A stretch of DNA of 64,000 nucleotides, taken from positions 2,108,001 through 2,172,000 of the forward strand of contig NZ_PYFT01000001.1 in assembly GCF_003023845.1 (NCBI RefSeq). The letters run 5' to 3'. Below are positions 44,247 to 56,806 of this stretch, one piece after another. The notes beneath the pieces were generated by a model. That model saw only the letters and a list, made by a program, of their open reading frames with translations, was not told the origin of the DNA and did not search any database. Each line of letters begins with the position of its first letter. Position 1 is the stretch's first letter. The position numbers and the translations under genes were made by a program. Source of the stretch: Adhaeribacter arboris. Lineage in GTDB: Bacteria > Bacteroidota > Bacteroidia > Cytophagales > Hymenobacteraceae.

Positions 44247-45152
44247 ATGCCAGCCTCTAAAGTTCCTTTATATAGTGCATTAGCTGCTAATTTAGCCATT
44301 GCCATTACTAAATTTATTGCCGCCAGCATTACAGGCAGTTCGGCAATGGTTTCGGAGGGCATCCACTCTGTAGTAGATACCACCAACGAAGTATTACTAC
44401 TTTTCGGGATTGCTAAAAGCAAAAAGCCACCGAGTGCCAAGCGACCTTTTGGGTACGGTAAAGAACTTTATTTTTGGGCCTTCATTGTTTCAATTTTAAT
44501 ATTCGGCATTGGCGGCGGCATTTCTTTTTACGAAGGCGTGCAACACCTGCTGCACCCGGTGCAAATAGAAGATCCTAAATGGAACTACATTGTATTAGGA
44601 GCGGCCTTTGTGTTTGATGGTATTTCATTTATAACCGCCGTAAAAGAGTTTAACCGCCAACGTGGCTCGATCCGGTTCTGGAAAGCCGTACGGCATAGTA
44701 AAGACCCTTCTACTTTCGTGGTTTTGTTTGAAGATGCTGCCGATTTATTGGGTTTAACTGTGGCTTTCCTGGGCGTATTTTTAGGTCATTATTATAATAA
44801 TCCCTACTTCGACGGTATTGCCTCCATGATTATTGGTTTGATTCTGACAGCTATATCGGGAATATTAGCGAAAGAAAGCCGAAGTTTGTTAATGGGCGAA
44901 AGCGCCGATGCCGAAGTTTTAGACGAAGTAACCCATTTAACGGAATCGCATCCAACTGTGCAAAAAGTTTTACGGCCACTTTCCATGTACCTGGCCCCCG
45001 AGGAAATTATTTTAATTTTAATTGTAGCTTTCCGGGAAGAAGTAAATAGCGCTGAAGTAACGAATGCAATTGTTACCATCCGGCAAACTATTCAGGAACG
45101 ATTCCCGTCTATTAAACAAATATTTATTGAACCGGAAATGTTAAGCATTTAA
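44247..45152 (+). CDS. Cation diffusion facilitator (CDF) family transporter
   Basis: 301 residues with six membrane helices in the first 200 and a C-terminal cytoplasmic domain. The metal-site motif EGIHSVVDTTNE carries the His/Asp pair of helix 2. The second site segment is FEDAADLLGLT in helix 5. The C-terminal domain (LTESHPTVQKVLRPLSMYL) is a dimerising fold. It exports divalent metals, usually Zn or Fe/Mn/Co; which one cannot be told. Starts with an ATG, 211 bases after the lipoprotein gene. A bidirectional hairpin follows. Confidence 0.9.
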   Translation: MPASKVPLYSALAANLAIAITKFIAASITGSSAMVSEGIHSVVDTTNEVLLLFGIAKSKKPPSAKRPFGYGKELYFWAFIVSILIFGIGGGISFYEGVQHLLHPVQIEDPKWNYIVLGAAFVFDGISFITAVKEFNRQRGSIRFWKAVRHSKDPSTFVVLFEDAADLLGLTVAFLGVFLGHYYNNPYFDGIASMIIGLILTAISGILAKESRSLLMGESADAEVLDEVTHLTESHPTVQKVLRPLSMYLAPEEIILILIVAFREEVNSAEVTNAIVTIRQTIQERFPSIKQIFIEPEMLSI

Positions 45153-49030: not shown

Positions 49031-49069
49031 TCTAATCCTATTCTAATGTGCTTCTAATCCGGCTCTAAT
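49031..49069 (+). promoter_or_regulatory. Four TCTAAT direct repeats at exact 11-bp spacing: candidate response-regulator binding array
   Basis: TCTAAT occurs at 49031-49036, 49042-49047, 49053-49058 and 49064-49069, i.e. starting at 31, 42, 53 and 64, each exactly 11 bases apart. This helical phasing is the typical footprint of OmpR/PhoB-type regulators, which bind direct repeats as tandem dimers. It ends 10 bases before a -7 box (49080-49087) and covers the -33 position. The operon downstream is an RND metal-efflux system whose OmpR-type regulator is encoded at 56.1-56.8 kb. Confidence 0.6.
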
Positions 49070-49079
49070 ACCACCCATT

Positions 49080-49087
49080 TACCTTTG
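49080..49087 (+). promoter_or_regulatory. -7 box of the metal-efflux operon
   Basis: TACCTTTG, an exact TAnnTTTG match, 24 bases before the ATG at 49112. It has no TTG -33 element at the expected distance, which fits activator-dependent transcription from the overlapping repeats. Confidence 0.6.
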
Positions 49088-49111: not shown

Positions 49112-50404
49112 ATGCAAAGGCTTATCTTATTTATAGTATTTCTTTTCGCTTGTGGTAGTCAGGCAAGAGCGCAAACGGCTACTTTAACTGCTGCCCGCAC
49201 AGATACACTCCGGTTATCTATCAACGAGGCCGAAAAATTATTTACGCAAAATAACCTCTCGCTGCTTTCGCAAAAATTGCAGGTGAATGCGGCCGCCGCA
49301 GCCGTTATACAAGCGCGATTATTTTCAAACCCTACTATTAGCGTAGAGCAAAATATTTACAATCCGCAGAACAATCGGGAATTTGATGTAAGCAAATCGG
49401 GGCAGCTAATTGTGCAGGTACAACAATTATTTCAGTTAGCCGGCAAACGGAACAAGCGCGTAGCGGTAGAGCAACTAAATGCCCGTATGACCGAGTACCA
49501 GTATTTTGATTTGCTGCGCAGCCTACGTTTTGAACTGCGGACCTCCCTGTTGGAACTATCGTATCTGCTGCAAAATTTAAAAACCTATTCCGACCGGATT
49601 GAACCGGTTCGTAAATTAGTAGGCGCCTTCGAAACTCAATACAGCAAAGGCAATGTGGCTTTAAAAGAAGTTACCCGGCTGAAGGCTTTAATATTCTCTC
49701 TCGAAAACCAACGACTAGATTTACTCAATCAAATAAACCAACACCAAGCTGATTTAGGAATTTTGCTGCATGTTGAACCAAATGTTTTTGTTCTGCCGGT
49801 TATTGACCAAAATCAACTTAACCAAGTTACTGCCCAGCTTAACTTGCCGGAACTGCTGCAAACGGCCACACAAAACCGTTATGATTTAAAAATTTACCAG
49901 ACCGGCATAGCGCAACAGGAAGCCAATTTAGTTTATCAAAAATCTTTGTCGGTACCAGACCTCACATTAGGCGGCGTGTACGACCGGCAAGGTTCCTTTG
50001 TACGCGATTATACCGGGTTGCAGGCGCAGATAAGTCTGCCGGTCATTAATCGGAACCAAGGCGGCATTAAAATCGCGCAACAACTACTTGAGAAAAGTAA
50101 ACTCGACTACGAACAATACCAAAATCAGGTAGAACAAGACGTAGTTACTGCCTTCAGCCACGTTCTTACTACAAATAAACTTTACTCTGATTTTGATGCG
50201 AAGTTCTCCCAGGATTTTGACAAACTGATAACCGGTGTTACTTCCAGTTTCAGTAAACGCAATATCAGCCTCATCGAATTTATAGATTACTACGAAACCT
50301 ACACCGAAAGCATCACCCAGATGCTGCAATTGCAAAGCAATCGCGCACGCGCATTAGAAGAAATAAATTTTGCCGTTGGCGCTCCCATTATAAAATATCA
50401 GTAA
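49112..50404 (+). CDS. TolC-family outer-membrane efflux protein (CusC/CzcC-like)
   Basis: 430 residues from the ATG at 49112, which begins a signal peptide (FIVFLFACGSQARAQ); a TTG at 49085 lies inside the promoter and is excluded. The rest is alpha-helical barrel sequence with the OEP two-fold repeat, including ALKEVTRLKALIFSLENQRLDL. It forms the outer-membrane exit channel of the tripartite metal pump. First gene of an operon with the adaptor 13 bases downstream and the RND pump after that. Confidence 0.88.
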   Translation: MQRLILFIVFLFACGSQARAQTATLTAARTDTLRLSINEAEKLFTQNNLSLLSQKLQVNAAAAAVIQARLFSNPTISVEQNIYNPQNNREFDVSKSGQLIVQVQQLFQLAGKRNKRVAVEQLNARMTEYQYFDLLRSLRFELRTSLLELSYLLQNLKTYSDRIEPVRKLVGAFETQYSKGNVALKEVTRLKALIFSLENQRLDLLNQINQHQADLGILLHVEPNVFVLPVIDQNQLNQVTAQLNLPELLQTATQNRYDLKIYQTGIAQQEANLVYQKSLSVPDLTLGGVYDRQGSFVRDYTGLQAQISLPVINRNQGGIKIAQQLLEKSKLDYEQYQNQVEQDVVTAFSHVLTTNKLYSDFDAKFSQDFDKLITGVTSSFSKRNISLIEFIDYYETYTESITQMLQLQSNRARALEEINFAVGAPIIKYQ

Positions 50405-50417
50405 ACCCAATTAAATC

Positions 50418-51512
50418 ATGAAAAATCTTTTAATAAGCGGCTGCATGGTGGTAGCTGCTACCTTTCTGTTCAGCGGTTGCCAGCAAAGTCACGGAGAAAT
50501 TGAAAAGGCAGACCTGGGTTTTTGCCTCTCCGACACTATCAGCAGCATGATAAAACTCGATACCGCGCGGGTACAGGAAGTACAAAATGAACTGAAGCTT
50601 TCGGGCAAGGTCGCCTTCGACGAGCAGAAAGTATTTAAAATTTACCCCTTGGTTGGCGGCAATGTGGTAGATGTAAAAGCTGAGTTAGGCGACCAGGTAA
50701 AGCAAGGACAAGTGTTAGCCGTTATTCACAGCAGCGAAATAGCCGATTTTGAACAACAATTAACCAATGCCCAATCTAATTTGCTCCTGGCCGATAAAAA
50801 CCTGAGTACCGCCGAAGATATGTATAAATCCGGCCTAATGTCGGAGCGGGACTACGTTACGGCCCAAAAAGAAAAAAGTAAAGCCCAGGCTGAAGTAAAG
50901 CGAATAAACGAAATTTTTAAAATTTATAACATCGGCAAAGCCTCGGATTACGTGGTAAAAGCGCCTGCTTCGGGATTTTTGGTGGAGAAAAAGGTGAACC
51001 GCGATATGCAAATCCGCCCGGACAATACCGATAATATATTTACCATTTCTAACCTCAACGATATTTGGATACTAGCCAATGTGTACGAAACGGATATCGC
51101 CAAAGTACAAGAAGGCTACCAGGCCACCGTATCCGTTTTAAGTTACCCCGACAAAGTATTTACCGGCAAAGTAGATAAAATTTTTAATGTGCTCGACCCG
51201 GACACGCGAGTAATGAAAGTGCGAATTAAGTTAGATAACCCGGATTTTGCCCTGAAACCGGAAATGTTCGCCAATGTTACCATTCATTATCCCGAAGATA
51301 AGCAACTAATTGCCGTACCGGCCATATCCGTCATTTTTGATAAGAACCGCAATTTTATTATGGTGTACCGCAAACGCTGCGACATCGATACACGCCCCGT
51401 GGAGTTGTACAAAACGGTAAACCAAACAGCCTACATACAAACCGGCCTCAAACCCGGCGAAAAAGTTATAACCGATTACCAATTACTCGTTTACGACGCT
51501 TTAAACGACTAA
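50418..51512 (+). CDS. RND efflux periplasmic adaptor (membrane-fusion protein)
   Basis: 364 residues. A lipoprotein-type signal peptide ends in TFLFSGC, so it is anchored by lipid. The order is a biotinyl-lipoyl-like domain (GNVVDVKAELGDQVKQGQVLAVI), a helical hairpin, a return lipoyl half (KAPASGFLVEKKVNRDMQI) and a beta-barrel, typical of CusB/CzcB-type proteins. It bridges the inner-membrane pump and the TolC-like channel. The stop is 5 bases before the pump start. There is no His-rich or Met-rich metal-binding N-terminus, so the metal is not evident from this subunit. Confidence 0.9.
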   Translation: MKNLLISGCMVVAATFLFSGCQQSHGEIEKADLGFCLSDTISSMIKLDTARVQEVQNELKLSGKVAFDEQKVFKIYPLVGGNVVDVKAELGDQVKQGQVLAVIHSSEIADFEQQLTNAQSNLLLADKNLSTAEDMYKSGLMSERDYVTAQKEKSKAQAEVKRINEIFKIYNIGKASDYVVKAPASGFLVEKKVNRDMQIRPDNTDNIFTISNLNDIWILANVYETDIAKVQEGYQATVSVLSYPDKVFTGKVDKIFNVLDPDTRVMKVRIKLDNPDFALKPEMFANVTIHYPEDKQLIAVPAISVIFDKNRNFIMVYRKRCDIDTRPVELYKTVNQTAYIQTGLKPGEKVITDYQLLVYDALND

Positions 51513-51517
51513 ATTTT

Positions 51518-54500
51518 ATGAATAAATTTATTTCCGGGCTGGTAGCATTTTCTTTAAAAAACCGGCCTTTCATATTTTTTGCCACTGCTGTTTTAGCGAT
51601 TGCCGGCTTTTACTCTTTCCAGAAAACTCCCATCGAAGCTTTCCCGGATGTAACCAACACGCAAATAATTGTAGTTACCGAATGGAATGGCCGCAGCGCC
51701 GAAGAAATAGAGCGCTTTGTAACTACTCCCATCGAAATTGCCATGAACTCAGTGCAGCGCAAAACGAATGTGCGGTCAATTTCTATGTTCGGGTTATCGG
51801 TCATGAAAATTATCTTCGACGATGATGTGGATGATTTCTTTGCCCGGCAGCAAGTGAATAATCTATTAGCCAACGTAGCGCTGCCCGAGGGAGTAGACCC
51901 GGTGGTACAACCGCCGTATGGCCCAACCGGCGAAATTTTCCGATATACATTGGAAAGTAAACAACGCACTTCACGCGATTTATTAACCTATCAGAACTGG
52001 GTAGTAGACCGCCAGTTGCGCAGCTTGCCCGGCGTGGCTGATATCGTAACTTTTGGCGGGGAGGAAAAAACCTACGAAGTAAGCGTTAATCCTTCTTTAC
52101 TGGCTAAATACGACATTACGCCTCTTGATGTATTTAACGCGGTATCTAAAAGTAATATTAACGTGGGCGGTGATGTGATTGAAAAAAACGGTCAAGCATA
52201 TGTGGTTCGCGGCGTAGGCTTACTCAACAGCATTACTGATATCGAAAACATTATCGTGGAGAACATAAATGGTACGCCCATAATGGTGAAAAACGTGGCT
52301 GATGTGCAGGAAGCTGCCGCTCCGCGGGTGGGTCAGGCGGGTAAAGGCACCAACAACGACGTAGTGGAAGGCATCGTGGTTATGCGGAAAGGTGAAAACC
52401 CTTCCGAAGTATTGGCGCGGGTAAAAGATAAAATTAAACAGCTTAACTCCGATGTTTTACCGGCTGATGTGAAAATTGTAACCTTCTACGACCGCGATAA
52501 CCTAATGGCTTTTTGCACCGAAACCGTGATGCATAACTTAGCCGAAGGTATTATTCTGGTAACGGTGGTAGTTTTTCTATTTATGGCCGATTGGCGCACT
52601 ACCCTTATTGTTTCCATCATTATTCCTTTAGCCCTTTTATTTGCCTTCATGTGCATGCGCCTGAAAGGCATGTCGGCGAACTTACTTTCACTGGGTGCCG
52701 TGGATTTCGGGATAATCATTGACGGTGCCGTAGTAATGGTGGAAGGTTTGTTTGTGGTTCTCGACCATAAGGCGCACGAAGTAGGCATGGATAAATTTAA
52801 TCGTTTGTCTAAGCTCGGATTAATCAAAAAAACCGGTTCTGAAATGGCCAAAGCCATCTTCTTTTCCAAGTTAATCATTATCACAGCCTTGTTGCCTATA
52901 TTCTCCTTCGAGAAAGTAGAAGGAAAAATGTTCTCGCCTTTGGCCTTTACGCTGGGGTTTGCCTTGTTGGGCGCTTTGCTGTTTACTCTAACCCTGGTGC
53001 CCGTTTTAGCTAGTATACTGTTAAATAAAAATGTACGCGAAAAACACAATCCCTTAGTTTTGTACCTGGAACGTGGCGTTACCAATTGCTTTAACTTTAC
53101 CTACCGGCATAAAAAAGCCAGCATTGGGGTAGCCCTGGTAATTCTGGCACTTTCTATGTTCTCGTTTAAGTTTTTAGGTTCCGAGTTTTTACCGCAACTT
53201 AACGAAGGCTCGTTGTGGGTAGAAGCCAAACTCCCCATGAGCAACTCGCTCACCGAAACAGTAGCTATGGTAAGCAAAATCCGGAGTAAAATCCGGACGT
53301 TTCCGGAAGTACAGGATGTTCTTTCGCAAACTGGCCGCTCTAACGATGGTACCGACCCTTCCGGATTTTATTACGTGCAATGCCAGGTGAACCTCTATCC
53401 GAAAAAAGAATGGAAACGCCACATTACCCAAGACCAGTTAATTGAGCAAATAGATGAACAACTGCGGCAATATCCCGGCATTGTGTATAATTACTCGCAA
53501 CCAATAATAGATAACGTAGCCGAAGCAGTAGCCGGCATAAACGCCTCGCTGGCCGTAAAAATATTTGGTTCAGATTTAGAAGAATTAGACCACAAGGCCG
53601 ACGAAGTATTAAAAGTATTGCAAAAAGTACCGGGCGTAAAAGATCTGGGAATATTGCGCAACATTGGGCAACCCGAACTTGCCATTATCTTGAACGAAGA
53701 GAAAATGGCTACTTACGGCGTACAAAAAGCCGATGCGCAGGCTGTAATAGAAATGGCCATAGGTGGTAAAGCGGCTACCCAACTTTTCGAGAACGAGAAG
53801 AAATTCGACGTGCGCATTCGTTATCCCAAACAATACCGCACCAACGAATCCGATATTGGTGATTTAAAAGTACCCACCATCCATGGCAGCAAAATACCCT
53901 TGCGCGAAATAGCGGATATTAAAAGCAATACCGGTGCGGCTTTTATTTACCGCGACAATAACCAGCGCTTTGTAGCCATAAAATTTTCTATTCGGGAGCG
54001 CGATTTAGGTAGCACCATTAAAGAAGCGCAGCAGAAAGTACAAAACGCCGTGAAACTACCTAAAGGTTATTCCATACAGTGGAGCGGCGAGTTTGAAAAC
54101 CAGGTGCGCGCCACCCACCGCTTAACGCAGGTGGTACCCATAAGCTTGCTCATTATTTTTGTGATTTTGTTTATCATGTTTAGCAATATGCTGGATGCCG
54201 CCCTGGTGCTCCTTAACGTACCTTTTGCGCTGATTGGCGGAATACTGGCGCTACACGCTACGGGTACGGTATTTAGTATTTCGGCCGGGATTGGTTTTAT
54301 TGCGCTCTTTGGACTGTGCGTGCAAAATGGGGTAATTTTAATATCGGTATTCAAGAAAAACATAAAAGAGAAACTACCGTTGGGTCAGGCTATTTACGAA
54401 GGTGTTCGCGCCCGTACTCGCCCAGTAGTGATGACGGCTCTCATGGCGATGATTGGTTTAATGCCGGCCGCTCTTTCTACGGGCATTGGCTCCGAAACGC

Positions 54501-54646
54501 AAAAACCCTTGGCTATCGTGGTAATTGGCGGCTTAATTAGCGGCACCATCTTAACCTTACTCATTTTCCCGTTAATTTTTGATTTAGTTTATCACCGCAA
54601 ACAACAACGGCTGGAGAAAAAACAGAGACGGTTAGCGACGGCTTAA
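51518..54646 (+). CDS. Heavy-metal efflux RND pump (CusA/CzcA type)
   Basis: 1042 residues, normal for the HME-RND group. The first helix is followed by the porter regions. Helix 4 carries the HME signature DFGIIIDGAVVMVE with D396, D402 and E409, corresponding to the proton/metal-coupling residues of CzcA. Further pieces include KTPIEAFPDVTNTQI at the N-terminus and GSEFLPQLNEGSLWVEA in the second half. It pumps cations out of the cell or periplasm using the proton gradient. The metal (Cu/Ag or Co/Zn/Cd) cannot be fixed by eye. Followed by a good terminator. Confidence 0.93.
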   Translation: MNKFISGLVAFSLKNRPFIFFATAVLAIAGFYSFQKTPIEAFPDVTNTQIIVVTEWNGRSAEEIERFVTTPIEIAMNSVQRKTNVRSISMFGLSVMKIIFDDDVDDFFARQQVNNLLANVALPEGVDPVVQPPYGPTGEIFRYTLESKQRTSRDLLTYQNWVVDRQLRSLPGVADIVTFGGEEKTYEVSVNPSLLAKYDITPLDVFNAVSKSNINVGGDVIEKNGQAYVVRGVGLLNSITDIENIIVENINGTPIMVKNVADVQEAAAPRVGQAGKGTNNDVVEGIVVMRKGENPSEVLARVKDKIKQLNSDVLPADVKIVTFYDRDNLMAFCTETVMHNLAEGIILVTVVVFLFMADWRTTLIVSIIIPLALLFAFMCMRLKGMSANLLSLGAVDFGIIIDGAVVMVEGLFVVLDHKAHEVGMDKFNRLSKLGLIKKTGSEMAKAIFFSKLIIITALLPIFSFEKVEGKMFSPLAFTLGFALLGALLFTLTLVPVLASILLNKNVREKHNPLVLYLERGVTNCFNFTYRHKKASIGVALVILALSMFSFKFLGSEFLPQLNEGSLWVEAKLPMSNSLTETVAMVSKIRSKIRTFPEVQDVLSQTGRSNDGTDPSGFYYVQCQVNLYPKKEWKRHITQDQLIEQIDEQLRQYPGIVYNYSQPIIDNVAEAVAGINASLAVKIFGSDLEELDHKADEVLKVLQKVPGVKDLGILRNIGQPELAIILNEEKMATYGVQKADAQAVIEMAIGGKAATQLFENEKKFDVRIRYPKQYRTNESDIGDLKVPTIHGSKIPLREIADIKSNTGAAFIYRDNNQRFVAIKFSIRERDLGSTIKEAQQKVQNAVKLPKGYSIQWSGEFENQVRATHRLTQVVPISLLIIFVILFIMFSNMLDAALVLLNVPFALIGGILALHATGTVFSISAGIGFIALFGLCVQNGVILISVFKKNIKEKLPLGQAIYEGVRARTRPVVMTALMAMIGLMPAALSTGIGSETQKPLAIVVIGGLISGTILTLLIFPLIFDLVYHRKQQRLEKKQRRLATA

Positions 54647-54755: not shown

Positions 54756-56126
54756 TTAAACCCTACCGGCTGGTAAAATTATGTGGACCTGAGTACCATG
54801 ATTTACTTCGGAAGCTATCTGGATTTGCCCGTGATGCAAGTGAATAATTTTTTGGGTGAGCGCCAAACCGACACCTGTACCTTTAATCCCCCGGGCGTTT
54901 GCGGCCCGATAAAATGGCTCAAATATATTGTTTAAATCAGCCGGCGGGATACCCATACCTTGGTCCAGTACGTGAACATGTAACTGGTTATTCTGATAAA
55001 TTAGTTGTAATTGAACCGCTTTTCCGTTCGAAAATTTATGCGCGTTTTCCAACACATTTAGAAGTGCTGCCTTAAGTAAATCGCGGATACCGGTTACTTC
55101 TAAAATAATTGCTTCCTCGGGCATATTCTTAAAAGATACTGCCAGATTATTATCCGGATACAAGCGGTCCATCTCCGCTTTTAATTCCAGCAATAAATCA
55201 TCCAACGGAAACTTTTCTGTTTTCTGACTACTGTTTTCGGAATCTGTTTGCGCCAGGTTAAGCAAATCTTTGATTAATCTTTCTAACCGTTCGGCTTCGT
55301 TTTGTAAGGTTACTAAAGATACTTTGTATTCGGGAGGTTCCCGGTCGCGGCTTAAGGTTACTTCAATTTCCCCACTAATAGCCGTGAGCGGATTGCGAAG
55401 TTCGTGGGAAGCATTGGAAATAAAATTCTTCTGCATGTCGAAAGCGGTTTCTAAGCGGTCCAGCATCTGGTTAAAAGTTTTGGCCAAAAGCCCGAATTCA
55501 TCCTGTCCGTTACCTTCTTTTAGCCGCCGGTGCAAATTCGTAACCCGAATTTCGTTTACTTCGGCTACCATTTCTGACACCGGGTTTAAAACTAACGAAG
55601 TAAAGAATCTACCAATCAGAAATACTACTAAACTTCCCGCCAGAAAACTAATAATTAGTACTCGGCGGAGATTATCCATTTTCCGGTGCCCGGTTATATC
55701 TACCGCCGAAACAAATATGTAAAATTGGCCTTGATTATCCTGGTACAAAAATCCTATTCCTTGCCGGGAACCACGAGCAAATTGGATATACTTTTTTTTG
55801 GCAATCTGGTCGAAAGCCCGGGAGGGGGCAATAAAAGGATATTGGTTCCGGATAAAACGAGGCTTTTTATTCTGGTCAAAAATATCAATGGATTCCTGGT
55901 GTAAGTTTTGAAAAAACTTGCGGCGTACTTTCTCGAAGGTCTGAAAACTAATTTCGTCTTGTTCCAGGTATAATTGCGCAATGATATAACCTCGTTCGTG
56001 CAGCCGGTCAAAAAACTCTACTCGCCGGTACTGCTCCGAAGAATAATAAATAATCAAGAAGGAAATCATCAAAATCCCGGCAATCAGGAGCGTAAACGTA
56101 AGAGTAAGGCGCGTGCGGATACTCAT
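54756..56126 (-). CDS. Sensor histidine kinase of the metal-efflux locus (CusS-like)
   Basis: 456 residues. Membrane helix 1 (about 9-28), a periplasmic sensor region (about 30-150), helix 2 (about 155-175), a HAMP domain (PVSEMVAEVNEIRVTNLHRRL), HisKA with H241 in ISNASHELRNPLTAISGE, and HATPase (DQGMGIPP, GTGVGLALTQ). This is the CusS/heavy-metal sensor type. The ORF overlaps the end of the regulator gene by 4 bases (ATGA), so they are cotranslated. It converges with the efflux operon. Probably senses periplasmic metal and phosphorylates the adjacent regulator. Confidence 0.9.
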   Translation of the reverse strand: MSIRTRLTLTFTLLIAGILMISFLIIYYSSEQYRRVEFFDRLHERGYIIAQLYLEQDEISFQTFEKVRRKFFQNLHQESIDIFDQNKKPRFIRNQYPFIAPSRAFDQIAKKKYIQFARGSRQGIGFLYQDNQGQFYIFVSAVDITGHRKMDNLRRVLIISFLAGSLVVFLIGRFFTSLVLNPVSEMVAEVNEIRVTNLHRRLKEGNGQDEFGLLAKTFNQMLDRLETAFDMQKNFISNASHELRNPLTAISGEIEVTLSRDREPPEYKVSLVTLQNEAERLERLIKDLLNLAQTDSENSSQKTEKFPLDDLLLELKAEMDRLYPDNNLAVSFKNMPEEAIILEVTGIRDLLKAALLNVLENAHKFSNGKAVQLQLIYQNNQLHVHVLDQGMGIPPADLNNIFEPFYRAANARGIKGTGVGLALTQKIIHLHHGQIQIASEVNHGTQVHIILPAGRV

Positions 56127-56806
56127 AAATCACCGGTATCTTTCAGCATATATCCCATCCCGATAACCGTATGAATAAGTTTAGCCGAAAAATCTTTATC
56201 AATTTTATTACGCAAATAATTTACGTATACATCTACCACGTTAGAGCTTAAATCAAAATTAACTTCCCAAACATTTTCGAGTAAACTTAGCCGCGACAGT
56301 ACCTTGCCTTTATTCCGGAGAAAGTATTCCAATAAAGTAAATTCGCGGGCGGTAAGCGTAATGAGTTTATTGCTGCGGGTAACGGATTTGGTTTCCAGGT
56401 TTAGTTGTAAATCGGCAATTGTAAGTAGTTCGGATTCCTCGCTAACGTAGTGCCGGCGGTGCAAGGCCCGCACCCGGGCTAATAGCTCCCTGAATTTAAA
56501 TGGCTTCGTTAAATAATCATCCGCCCCAGCATCCAGGCCAGTTACTACATCGTCGGTAGTTCCTAAAGCGGTAAGCATAAGTACCGGTGTTTTTTTATCC
56601 TGCACCCGAATGTGCTTACAAACTTCAATTCCGTTCAGGTTAGGTAAAATTACATCCAGTATAATAAGATCGTAAGAATTTTGGGTAGCCAAGCTTTTAC
56701 CCGTAAATCCATCGTAGGCCACTTCTACTTCGTAAGCCTGTTCCTGCAAGCCTTTCTTAATAAAAGCCGCCACGTTAGGCTCATCTTCTACAACTAGAAT
56801 ATGCAT
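56123..56806 (-). CDS. OmpR-family response regulator of the metal-efflux locus (CusR-like)
   Basis: 227 residues, receiver plus winged-helix DNA-binding domain. The acidic residues lie in VVEDEPN, the phosphoacceptor is D51 in IILDVILPN, the lysine is in YLTKPF, and the trans_reg_C domain has LTAREFTLLEYFLRNKGKVLSR and VDVYVNYLRNKIDK. It belongs to the CusR/CopR group. The direct repeats with 11-bp spacing at 49031-49069, upstream of the efflux genes, are the expected kind of binding site. It precedes the kinase gene on the same strand. Confidence 0.92.
   Translation of the reverse strand: MHILVVEDEPNVAAFIKKGLQEQAYEVEVAYDGFTGKSLATQNSYDLIILDVILPNLNGIEVCKHIRVQDKKTPVLMLTALGTTDDVVTGLDAGADDYLTKPFKFRELLARVRALHRRHYVSEESELLTIADLQLNLETKSVTRSNKLITLTAREFTLLEYFLRNKGKVLSRLSLLENVWEVNFDLSSNVVDVYVNYLRNKIDKDFSAKLIHTVIGMGYMLKDTGDL

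What the first reader, a model, noticed from the sequence alone, without database searches (positions are those of the whole stretch)
49031..49087. Four phased TCTAAT repeats at the promoter of a metal-efflux operon
TCTAAT occurs four times at exactly 11-bp intervals, overlapping the -33 position of an exact TACCTTTG -7 box and ending 10 bases before it. A CusR-like OmpR-family regulator is encoded downstream of the convergent operon. Seen: repeats and promoter. Known: OmpR/PhoB-type regulators bind helically phased direct repeats. Inference: this is the operator through which metal sensing turns on the pump; four contiguous sites rather than two would allow two tandem dimers.
Basis: partly seen in the sequence, partly recalled or inferred. 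Interest (0 to 1): 0.6.

Follow-up and report, generated by a model that had tools for sequence, protein, structure and literature searches.

The report
Four-repeat switch of a metal-efflux operon
A row of four identical DNA words in front of a metal-pump operon is conserved across related bacteria and is very probably where the neighbouring two-component regulator binds to switch the pump on; a sister regulator in the same genome is paired with a row that differs by one letter per word, and this tracks a single Tyr/Phe difference in the DNA-reading helix.

Summary
It is the only such array in the 7.25-Mb genome (about 1e-7 expected). It is conserved: three-repeat arrays occur in 65 of 150 family genomes; 70 of 86 lie within 900 bp upstream of a CzcC/CzcB-type gene, and 80 of 86 have a related sensor kinase or response regulator (RR) in the fetched region. 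Where a -7 box was recognised (62 of 70) the gap to it is always 10 bp. The best reading is a class II activator operator for the adjacent OmpR/PhoB-family RR, four half-sites for two tandem dimers. The pump is CzcA/ZneA-like, not CusA-like. Further: a paralogous RR (65% identical) sits before a SulP-carbonic anhydrase operon with the same architecture but TTTAAT half-sites. Across Bacteroidia, RRs with Tyr at window residue 197 (PhoP Tyr220, which contacts that base in the crystal) go with C at half-site position 2 (34/34 arrays have at least one C); RRs with Phe go with T only (28/28). Only about three independent switches underlie this; no binding has been tested.

The parts
49031..49036 (+). 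half-site 1, TCTAAT
   Evidence: sequence; TCTAAT in 61 of 70 arrays upstream of CzcC/CzcB-type genes
49042..49047 (+). half-site 2, TCTAAT
   Evidence: sequence; TCTAAT in 66 of 70
49053..49058 (+). half-site 3, TCTAAT, in the -33 region
   Evidence: sequence; TCTAAT in 56 and TCTAAC in 13 of 70
49064..49069 (+). half-site 4, TCTAAT, promoter-proximal; usually degenerate in relatives (CCTAAT commonest)
   Evidence: sequence; CCTAAT 36, TCTAAT 19, TATAAT 6 of 70
49080..49087 (+). -7 box TACCTTTG of the Bacteroidota promoter
   Evidence: sequence; gap of exactly 10 bp from half-site 4 in all 62 arrays where a -7 box was recognised
49112..50404 (+). outer-membrane channel gene of the pump (CzcC/OEP family); start ATG at 49112 (MQRL, conserved in G004)
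   Evidence: PF02321 E=1.5e-37; orthologues
50418..51512 (+). periplasmic adaptor gene (CzcB/CusB family)
   Evidence: PF16576 4e-46; TIGR01730 above cut-off
51518..54646 (+). RND permease gene, CzcA/ZneA-like heavy-metal efflux
   Evidence: TIGR00914 above cut-off; best solved relative ZneA 4k0e, E=1.2e-229, then CusA
54756..56126 (-). sensor histidine kinase, convergent with the pump operon
   Evidence: HAMP-HisKA-HATPase_c; best NCBIfam TIGR01386 heavy-metal HK, below its cut-off
56123..56806 (-). OmpR/PhoB-family response regulator, proposed to bind the array
   Evidence: PF00072 + PF00486; best NCBIfam TIGR01387 (253.8 vs cut-off 279.2)
56216..56218 (-). codon of Tyr197 in the recognition helix (Tyr220 of M. 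tuberculosis PhoP), proposed reader of C at half-site position 2
   Evidence: gap-free alignment to PhoP; top of 227 columns in mutual information with the operator letter; PMC4832192

Best explanation
The array is the operator of the neighbouring response regulator. On a signal (probably excess divalent metal such as Zn, Co or Cd) the convergent kinase phosphorylates the RR, and two head-to-tail RR dimers bind the four 11-bp half-sites on one face of the DNA. The dimer on half-sites 3-4 stands where a -33 element would be, 10 bp upstream of the -7 box, and recruits RNA polymerase to the czcCBA-like operon (class II activation). Each half-site is read by the wHTH recognition helix; Tyr197 reads the C at half-site position 2. 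A paralogous RR in the same genome has Phe at that position and is paired with TTTAAT arrays upstream of a SulP-carbonic anhydrase operon, which would keep the two systems apart. Shown: the array, its uniqueness, its conservation with pump and TCS, its fixed distance to the -7 box, the paralogue's array, and the Tyr/Phe-C/T correlation. Inferred: RR binding, phosphorylation, metal signal, activation, and the causal role of residue 197. The confidence given is for the operator reading; for residue 197 as the cause of the C/T preference it is about 0.65.
For: Uniqueness. Conservation: 65/150 family genomes with triple arrays, few in reversed controls; 70 of 86 arrays within 900 bp upstream of a CzcC/CzcB-type gene and 80 of 86 with a related TCS in the fetched region; gene order differs (convergent in some genera, RR-HK-array-OMF-MFP-RND in others) but the array stays with pump and TCS. 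Fixed 10-bp gap to the -7 box in 62/62 recognised cases. Core 39/39 identical where flanks are 21/60 and 18/39. RR-first survey, half-site position 2 left free: of the first 90 loci, arrays at score >=17 in 48% just after the kinase gene against 0.1% of dinucleotide shuffles; of 193 distinct RRs, 64 have arrays; Phe 28/28 TTTT, Tyr 34/34 at least one C, 93 of 136 half-sites C. Residue 197 is the best of 227 RR columns (MI 0.994 bit). In the PhoP-DNA crystal Tyr220 hydrogen-bonds to the second base (C) of its half-site TCACAGC (PMC4832192); the equivalent residue contacts bases in PmrA (Asn196, PMC4660055) and PhoB (Arg201, PMC3264566).
Against: No binding, footprint or expression data for any of these regulators. 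Tyr/Phe-C/T agreement rests on about three evolutionary switches (3-4 in bootstraps), too few for a sign test. A second RR column (window 214, wing) is also correlated (MI 0.837). Tyr regulators tolerate T (38/136 half-sites), so Tyr is not strictly C-only. 129 of 193 surveyed RRs had no detectable array in the region searched. The RR gene has no array of its own.
Confidence: 0.87

Rival explanations
1. The array is the operator of a different regulator (another OmpR/PhoB-family RR or an unrelated activator), and the adjacent TCS is only a chance neighbour.
For: OmpR-family RRs are numerous (73 first-look candidates in G000), and a few triple arrays lie where no related TCS or pump was seen (L051, L070).
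Against: The array stays with this TCS-pump set across genera in two different gene orders, and the operator letter tracks a residue of the adjacent RR.
Confidence: 0.08
2. The array is a repressor operator: the RR blocks the promoter from the -33 region and the metal signal relieves it.
For: Half-sites overlap the -33 region, a position from which repression is also possible.
Against: No -33 element is visible for the polymerase to use without an activator; the fixed 10-bp gap to the -7 box fits class II activation, as proposed for AgrR at promoters with poor -35 elements (PMC7380067).
Confidence: 0.05
3. Other parts of the RR (for example the wing column at window 214), not Tyr197, set the C/T preference; the Tyr/Phe correlation is shared ancestry. 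This rival concerns only the specificity part and is compatible with the operator reading.
For: Column 214 has MI 0.837; only about three switches.
Against: Residue 197 agrees without exception (62/62 Tyr/Phe cases), Phe RRs do not form one clade in any of 200 bootstrap trees, and this residue touches this base in the PhoP crystal.
Confidence: 0.3

Closest known systems
PhoB pho box and other OmpR/PhoB-family direct-repeat operators (E. coli PhoB CTGTCAT-N4; M. tuberculosis PhoP TCACAGC-N4)
   Same: head-to-tail half-sites with 11-bp period; M. tuberculosis PhoP has the same register, C at position 2 and Tyr at the contacting residue (PMC4832192); promoters with multiple boxes are known (PMC4415409)
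   Different: different half-site letters, four nearly identical half-sites, Bacteroidota -7 promoter, metal-pump target
PmrA (BasR) operator
   Same: 6-bp half-sites with 5-bp spacing; its YTTAAT-type box (from memory) is nearly the TTTAAT array of the paralogous RR; residue Asn196 contacts a base at the equivalent helix position (PMC4660055)
   Different: two half-sites; different helix residue; unrelated target genes
CopR/PcoR/AgrR boxes of proteobacterial metal regulators
   Same: OmpR-family RR next to a metal-resistance operon; activator position near the promoter
   Different: those boxes are inverted repeats (AgrR ATKACA-N4-TGTMAT; PMC7380067); this is a pure direct repeat
P. aeruginosa CzcR / czcCBA
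   Same: TCS control of a Czc pump
   Different: reported motif GAAAC-N6-GTAAT (PMC13209446), not a phased TCTAAT array

Membership tests
OmpR/PhoB-type direct-repeat operator | two or more head-to-tail half-sites about 11 bp apart | tested here: met
   four exact repeats at 11 bp
OmpR/PhoB-type direct-repeat operator | associated with an OmpR/PhoB-family RR (receiver + Trans_reg_C) | tested here: met
   PF00072 + PF00486 in the adjacent RR; association conserved
OmpR/PhoB-type direct-repeat operator | position fitting class II activation | tested here: met
   10-bp gap to the -7 box, no visible -33 element
OmpR/PhoB-type direct-repeat operator | demonstrated binding by the RR | not testable with these tools
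   needs EMSA or footprinting
CopR/CusR-type metal-RR box (inverted repeat) | palindromic half-sites | tested here: not met
   all half-sites in direct orientation in window and relatives
CusA-type (Cu/Ag) RND pump | CusA rather than CzcA/ZneA closest; permease motif of monovalent-metal pumps | tested here: not met
   ZneA 768 bits vs CusA 597 bits; DFGIIIDGAVVMVE aligned to ZneA DFGIIVDGAIVVME
CzcA/ZneA-type divalent-metal RND pump | DFG..D..E transmembrane motif and family score | tested here: met
   TIGR00914 997.6 vs cut-off 701; motif; transported metal not tested
Bacteroidota primary-sigma promoter | -7 box TAnnTTTG | tested here: met
   TACCTTTG at 49080; conserved spacing in relatives; start site not mapped
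TIGR01387 heavy-metal response regulator | curated score cut-off 279.2 | tested here: not met
   253.8 bits: near relative, not a member by that cut-off

The most novel reading that the evidence does not exclude
One recognition-helix residue (Tyr or Phe at the PhoP-220 position) sets C or T at half-site position 2 throughout Bacteroidia, and a Tyr/Phe change with matching changes in all four half-sites has repeatedly separated paralogous OmpR-family regulators (here metal efflux versus SulP-carbonic anhydrase) within one genome.
Probability: 0.6. Interest if true: 0.68.

Novelty: new variant of a known kind. Interest (0 to 1): 0.56.

Why it matters
How sister two-component systems avoid switching on each other's genes is studied mostly at the kinase-regulator step; here is a natural, repeated case at the DNA step with a one-residue, one-base hypothesis backed by an existing crystal contact. 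It also gives a readable operator rule for a large set of unstudied Bacteroidota regulators: the array just after the kinase gene, and the Tyr/Phe of the helix, predict the target promoter.

Tried and rejected
A pair of TCTAAT was rejected as a signature: no enrichment over the reversed control. The reversed-sequence control was rejected because reversed TTTAAT arrays still score in a shifted register; dinucleotide shuffles replaced it. The Fisher p value (2.9e-18) is not used as evidence because the sequences are related; the tree-based pair test had too few pairs. Arrays found with the TCTAAT pattern are biased to C and were kept out of the Tyr/Phe statistics, which use loci fetched by RR similarity only. 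G007 first seemed to lack the array; it has a degenerate one, TCTTAC/TCTAAT/TCTAAC/CCTAAT. G074 keeps the RR-HK pair, but the fetched region has neither pump hits nor a TCTAAT array. Literature searches found no description of TCTAAT arrays or of this Tyr/Phe rule in the held library; that library lacks most subscription papers.

Full report
Observation. The window holds TCTAAT at 49031, 49042, 49053 and 49064, exactly 11 bp apart, and TACCTTTG at 49080-49087, starting 10 bp after the last repeat. The expected number of such arrays in the 7.25-Mb genome is 1.5e-7 from the observed hexamer frequency, and no second array exists even with three mismatches. The region where a -33 element would lie is filled by repeats 3 and 4.

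Surroundings. Downstream is a three-gene pump operon: CzcC/OEP-type channel (ATG at 49112), CzcB/CusB-type adaptor, and an RND permease of the CzcA/CusA subfamily. Among solved structures the permease is closest to ZneA (768 bits) and then CusA (597 bits), and it has the DFGIIIDGAVVMVE motif aligned with ZneA; from general knowledge that motif marks divalent-cation pumps, so Zn/Co/Cd is more likely than Cu/Ag. Convergent with the operon are a sensor kinase and an OmpR/PhoB-family RR.

Conservation. In the genus, the five genomes with an orthologous channel gene all have the array. Between the window and G004 the 39-bp core is identical while 60 bp upstream and 39 bp downstream match at 21 and 18 positions without gaps. 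In 150 family genomes, 65 have at least one triple array with at most one mismatch, with few in the reversed control. Of 86 arrays, 70 lie within 900 bp upstream of a CzcC- or CzcB-type gene and 5 more before a more distant RND permease; 80 have a related RR or kinase in the fetched region. Gene order differs: convergent in some genera, RR-HK-array-pump in others. Where a -7 box was recognised (62 of 70), the gap from half-site 4 is 10 bp without exception. Half-sites 1-3 are nearly invariant and half-site 4 is looser (CCTAAT commonest).

A sister system. The same genome has a second RR, 65% identical, followed by its kinase and then TTTAAT, TTTAAT, TTTAAT, ATTAAT at 11-bp steps before a SulP transporter and a carbonic anhydrase gene. 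All 20 orthologous loci fetched by RR similarity have the TTTAAT-type version before SulP. So two paralogous regulators in one genome sit beside arrays of the same shape that differ by one base per half-site.

Which residue. Recognition helices read SNVVDVYVNYLRNKID (window) and SNVIDVYINFLRKKVD (paralogue). In a survey of RRs fetched by protein similarity only, arrays were sought behind the kinase gene with half-site position 2 left free. Of the first 90 loci 48% had an array at score >=17, against 0.1% of dinucleotide shuffles. Over 193 distinct RRs, 64 had an array: 28 with Phe (all 112 half-sites T), 34 with Tyr (each with at least one C; 93 C, 38 T, 5 other of 136), one Leu (three T, one C) and one Arg from a spirochaete (three G, one A). 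Among 227 RR columns, residue 197 has the highest mutual information with the presence of C (0.994 bit); the next is column 214 in the wing (0.837). The window residue aligns without gaps to Tyr220 of M. tuberculosis PhoP, which in the crystal hydrogen-bonds to C5, the second base of the TCACAGC half-site (PMC4832192). The equivalent PhoB Arg201 and PmrA Asn196 are also base-contacting (PMC3264566, PMC4660055).

Limits of that. On a tree built without the residue and its neighbours, Tyr/Phe changes 3-4 times across bootstraps, never once only, and the operator letter needs the same number of changes (3) on the best tree; only one contrast rests on strongly supported branches, and a sign test has no power. 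The correlation is therefore exact but built on few events, and mutation is needed. Tyr is permissive (T in 38 of 136), Phe is strict in the sample.

Mechanism. Most likely two tandem RR dimers on four half-sites activate transcription from the -33 position (class II). Precedent: OmpR/PhoB-family proteins bind 11-bp direct repeats head to tail, and promoters with more than one box are known (PMC4415409; PMC3264566). AgrR acts as a type II activator at promoters with poor -35 elements (PMC7380067). Binding, phosphorylation and metal induction are inferred. No array was seen before the RR gene itself, so autoregulation through this motif is unlikely in the window.

Comparison. It works like a pho box or a PmrA box; it is not a CopR/PcoR/AgrR-type box, which is an inverted repeat (PMC7380067), and differs from the P. 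aeruginosa CzcR motif (PMC13209446). The operator itself is a new example of a known kind; the paired C/T operators with a Tyr/Phe switch between paralogues are the new element and were not found in the held literature.

Noticed in passing
L136:9596-14020 (G000:C1:713595-718019): Paralogous RR-HK pair followed by a 4x TTTAAT-type array and a SulP transporter plus carbonic anhydrase operon; SulP layout in all 20 orthologous loci fetched, carbonic anhydrase in nearly all.
   Followed up: yes
L252 (Spirochaetales MAG), about 1371 bp after the RR: RR with Arg at the PhoP-220 position beside CATTAC/TGTAAT/TGTAAT/TGTAAT: G at position 2, as in the PhoB box with Arg201. A single case.
   Followed up: partly
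L067, L072, L093, L094, L097: TCTAAT-type arrays before a distantly related RND permease (22-23% identical to the window's) with a related kinase just upstream.
   Followed up: no
L047, L048, L052, L053, L058, L069, L071, L109, L117: Two arrays about 1.1-1.45 kb apart: one before a lone adaptor (CzcB-like) gene and one before the full pump operon, suggesting an extra adaptor under the same regulator.
   Followed up: no
L351 near its centre (G003:C1:984448-984486 -); also G000:C1:2344927-2344976: Further TTTAAT arrays at 11-bp spacing in the genus away from the SulP locus; in L351 upstream of a 155-aa protein. Possible extra targets of a Phe-type regulator.
   Followed up: no
L051, L070: Perfect four-fold TCTAAT arrays with no hit to the pump or two-component proteins within the fetched region.
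   Followed up: no
L085, L087: TCTAAT arrays about 3.2 kb and 1.0 kb upstream of the RR-HK pair, with no pump nearby: other possible regulon members.
   Followed up: no
window 44247-45152: ORF that looks, by eye, like a cation diffusion facilitator transporter, 4 kb before the pump operon; no family search was run on it.
   Followed up: no
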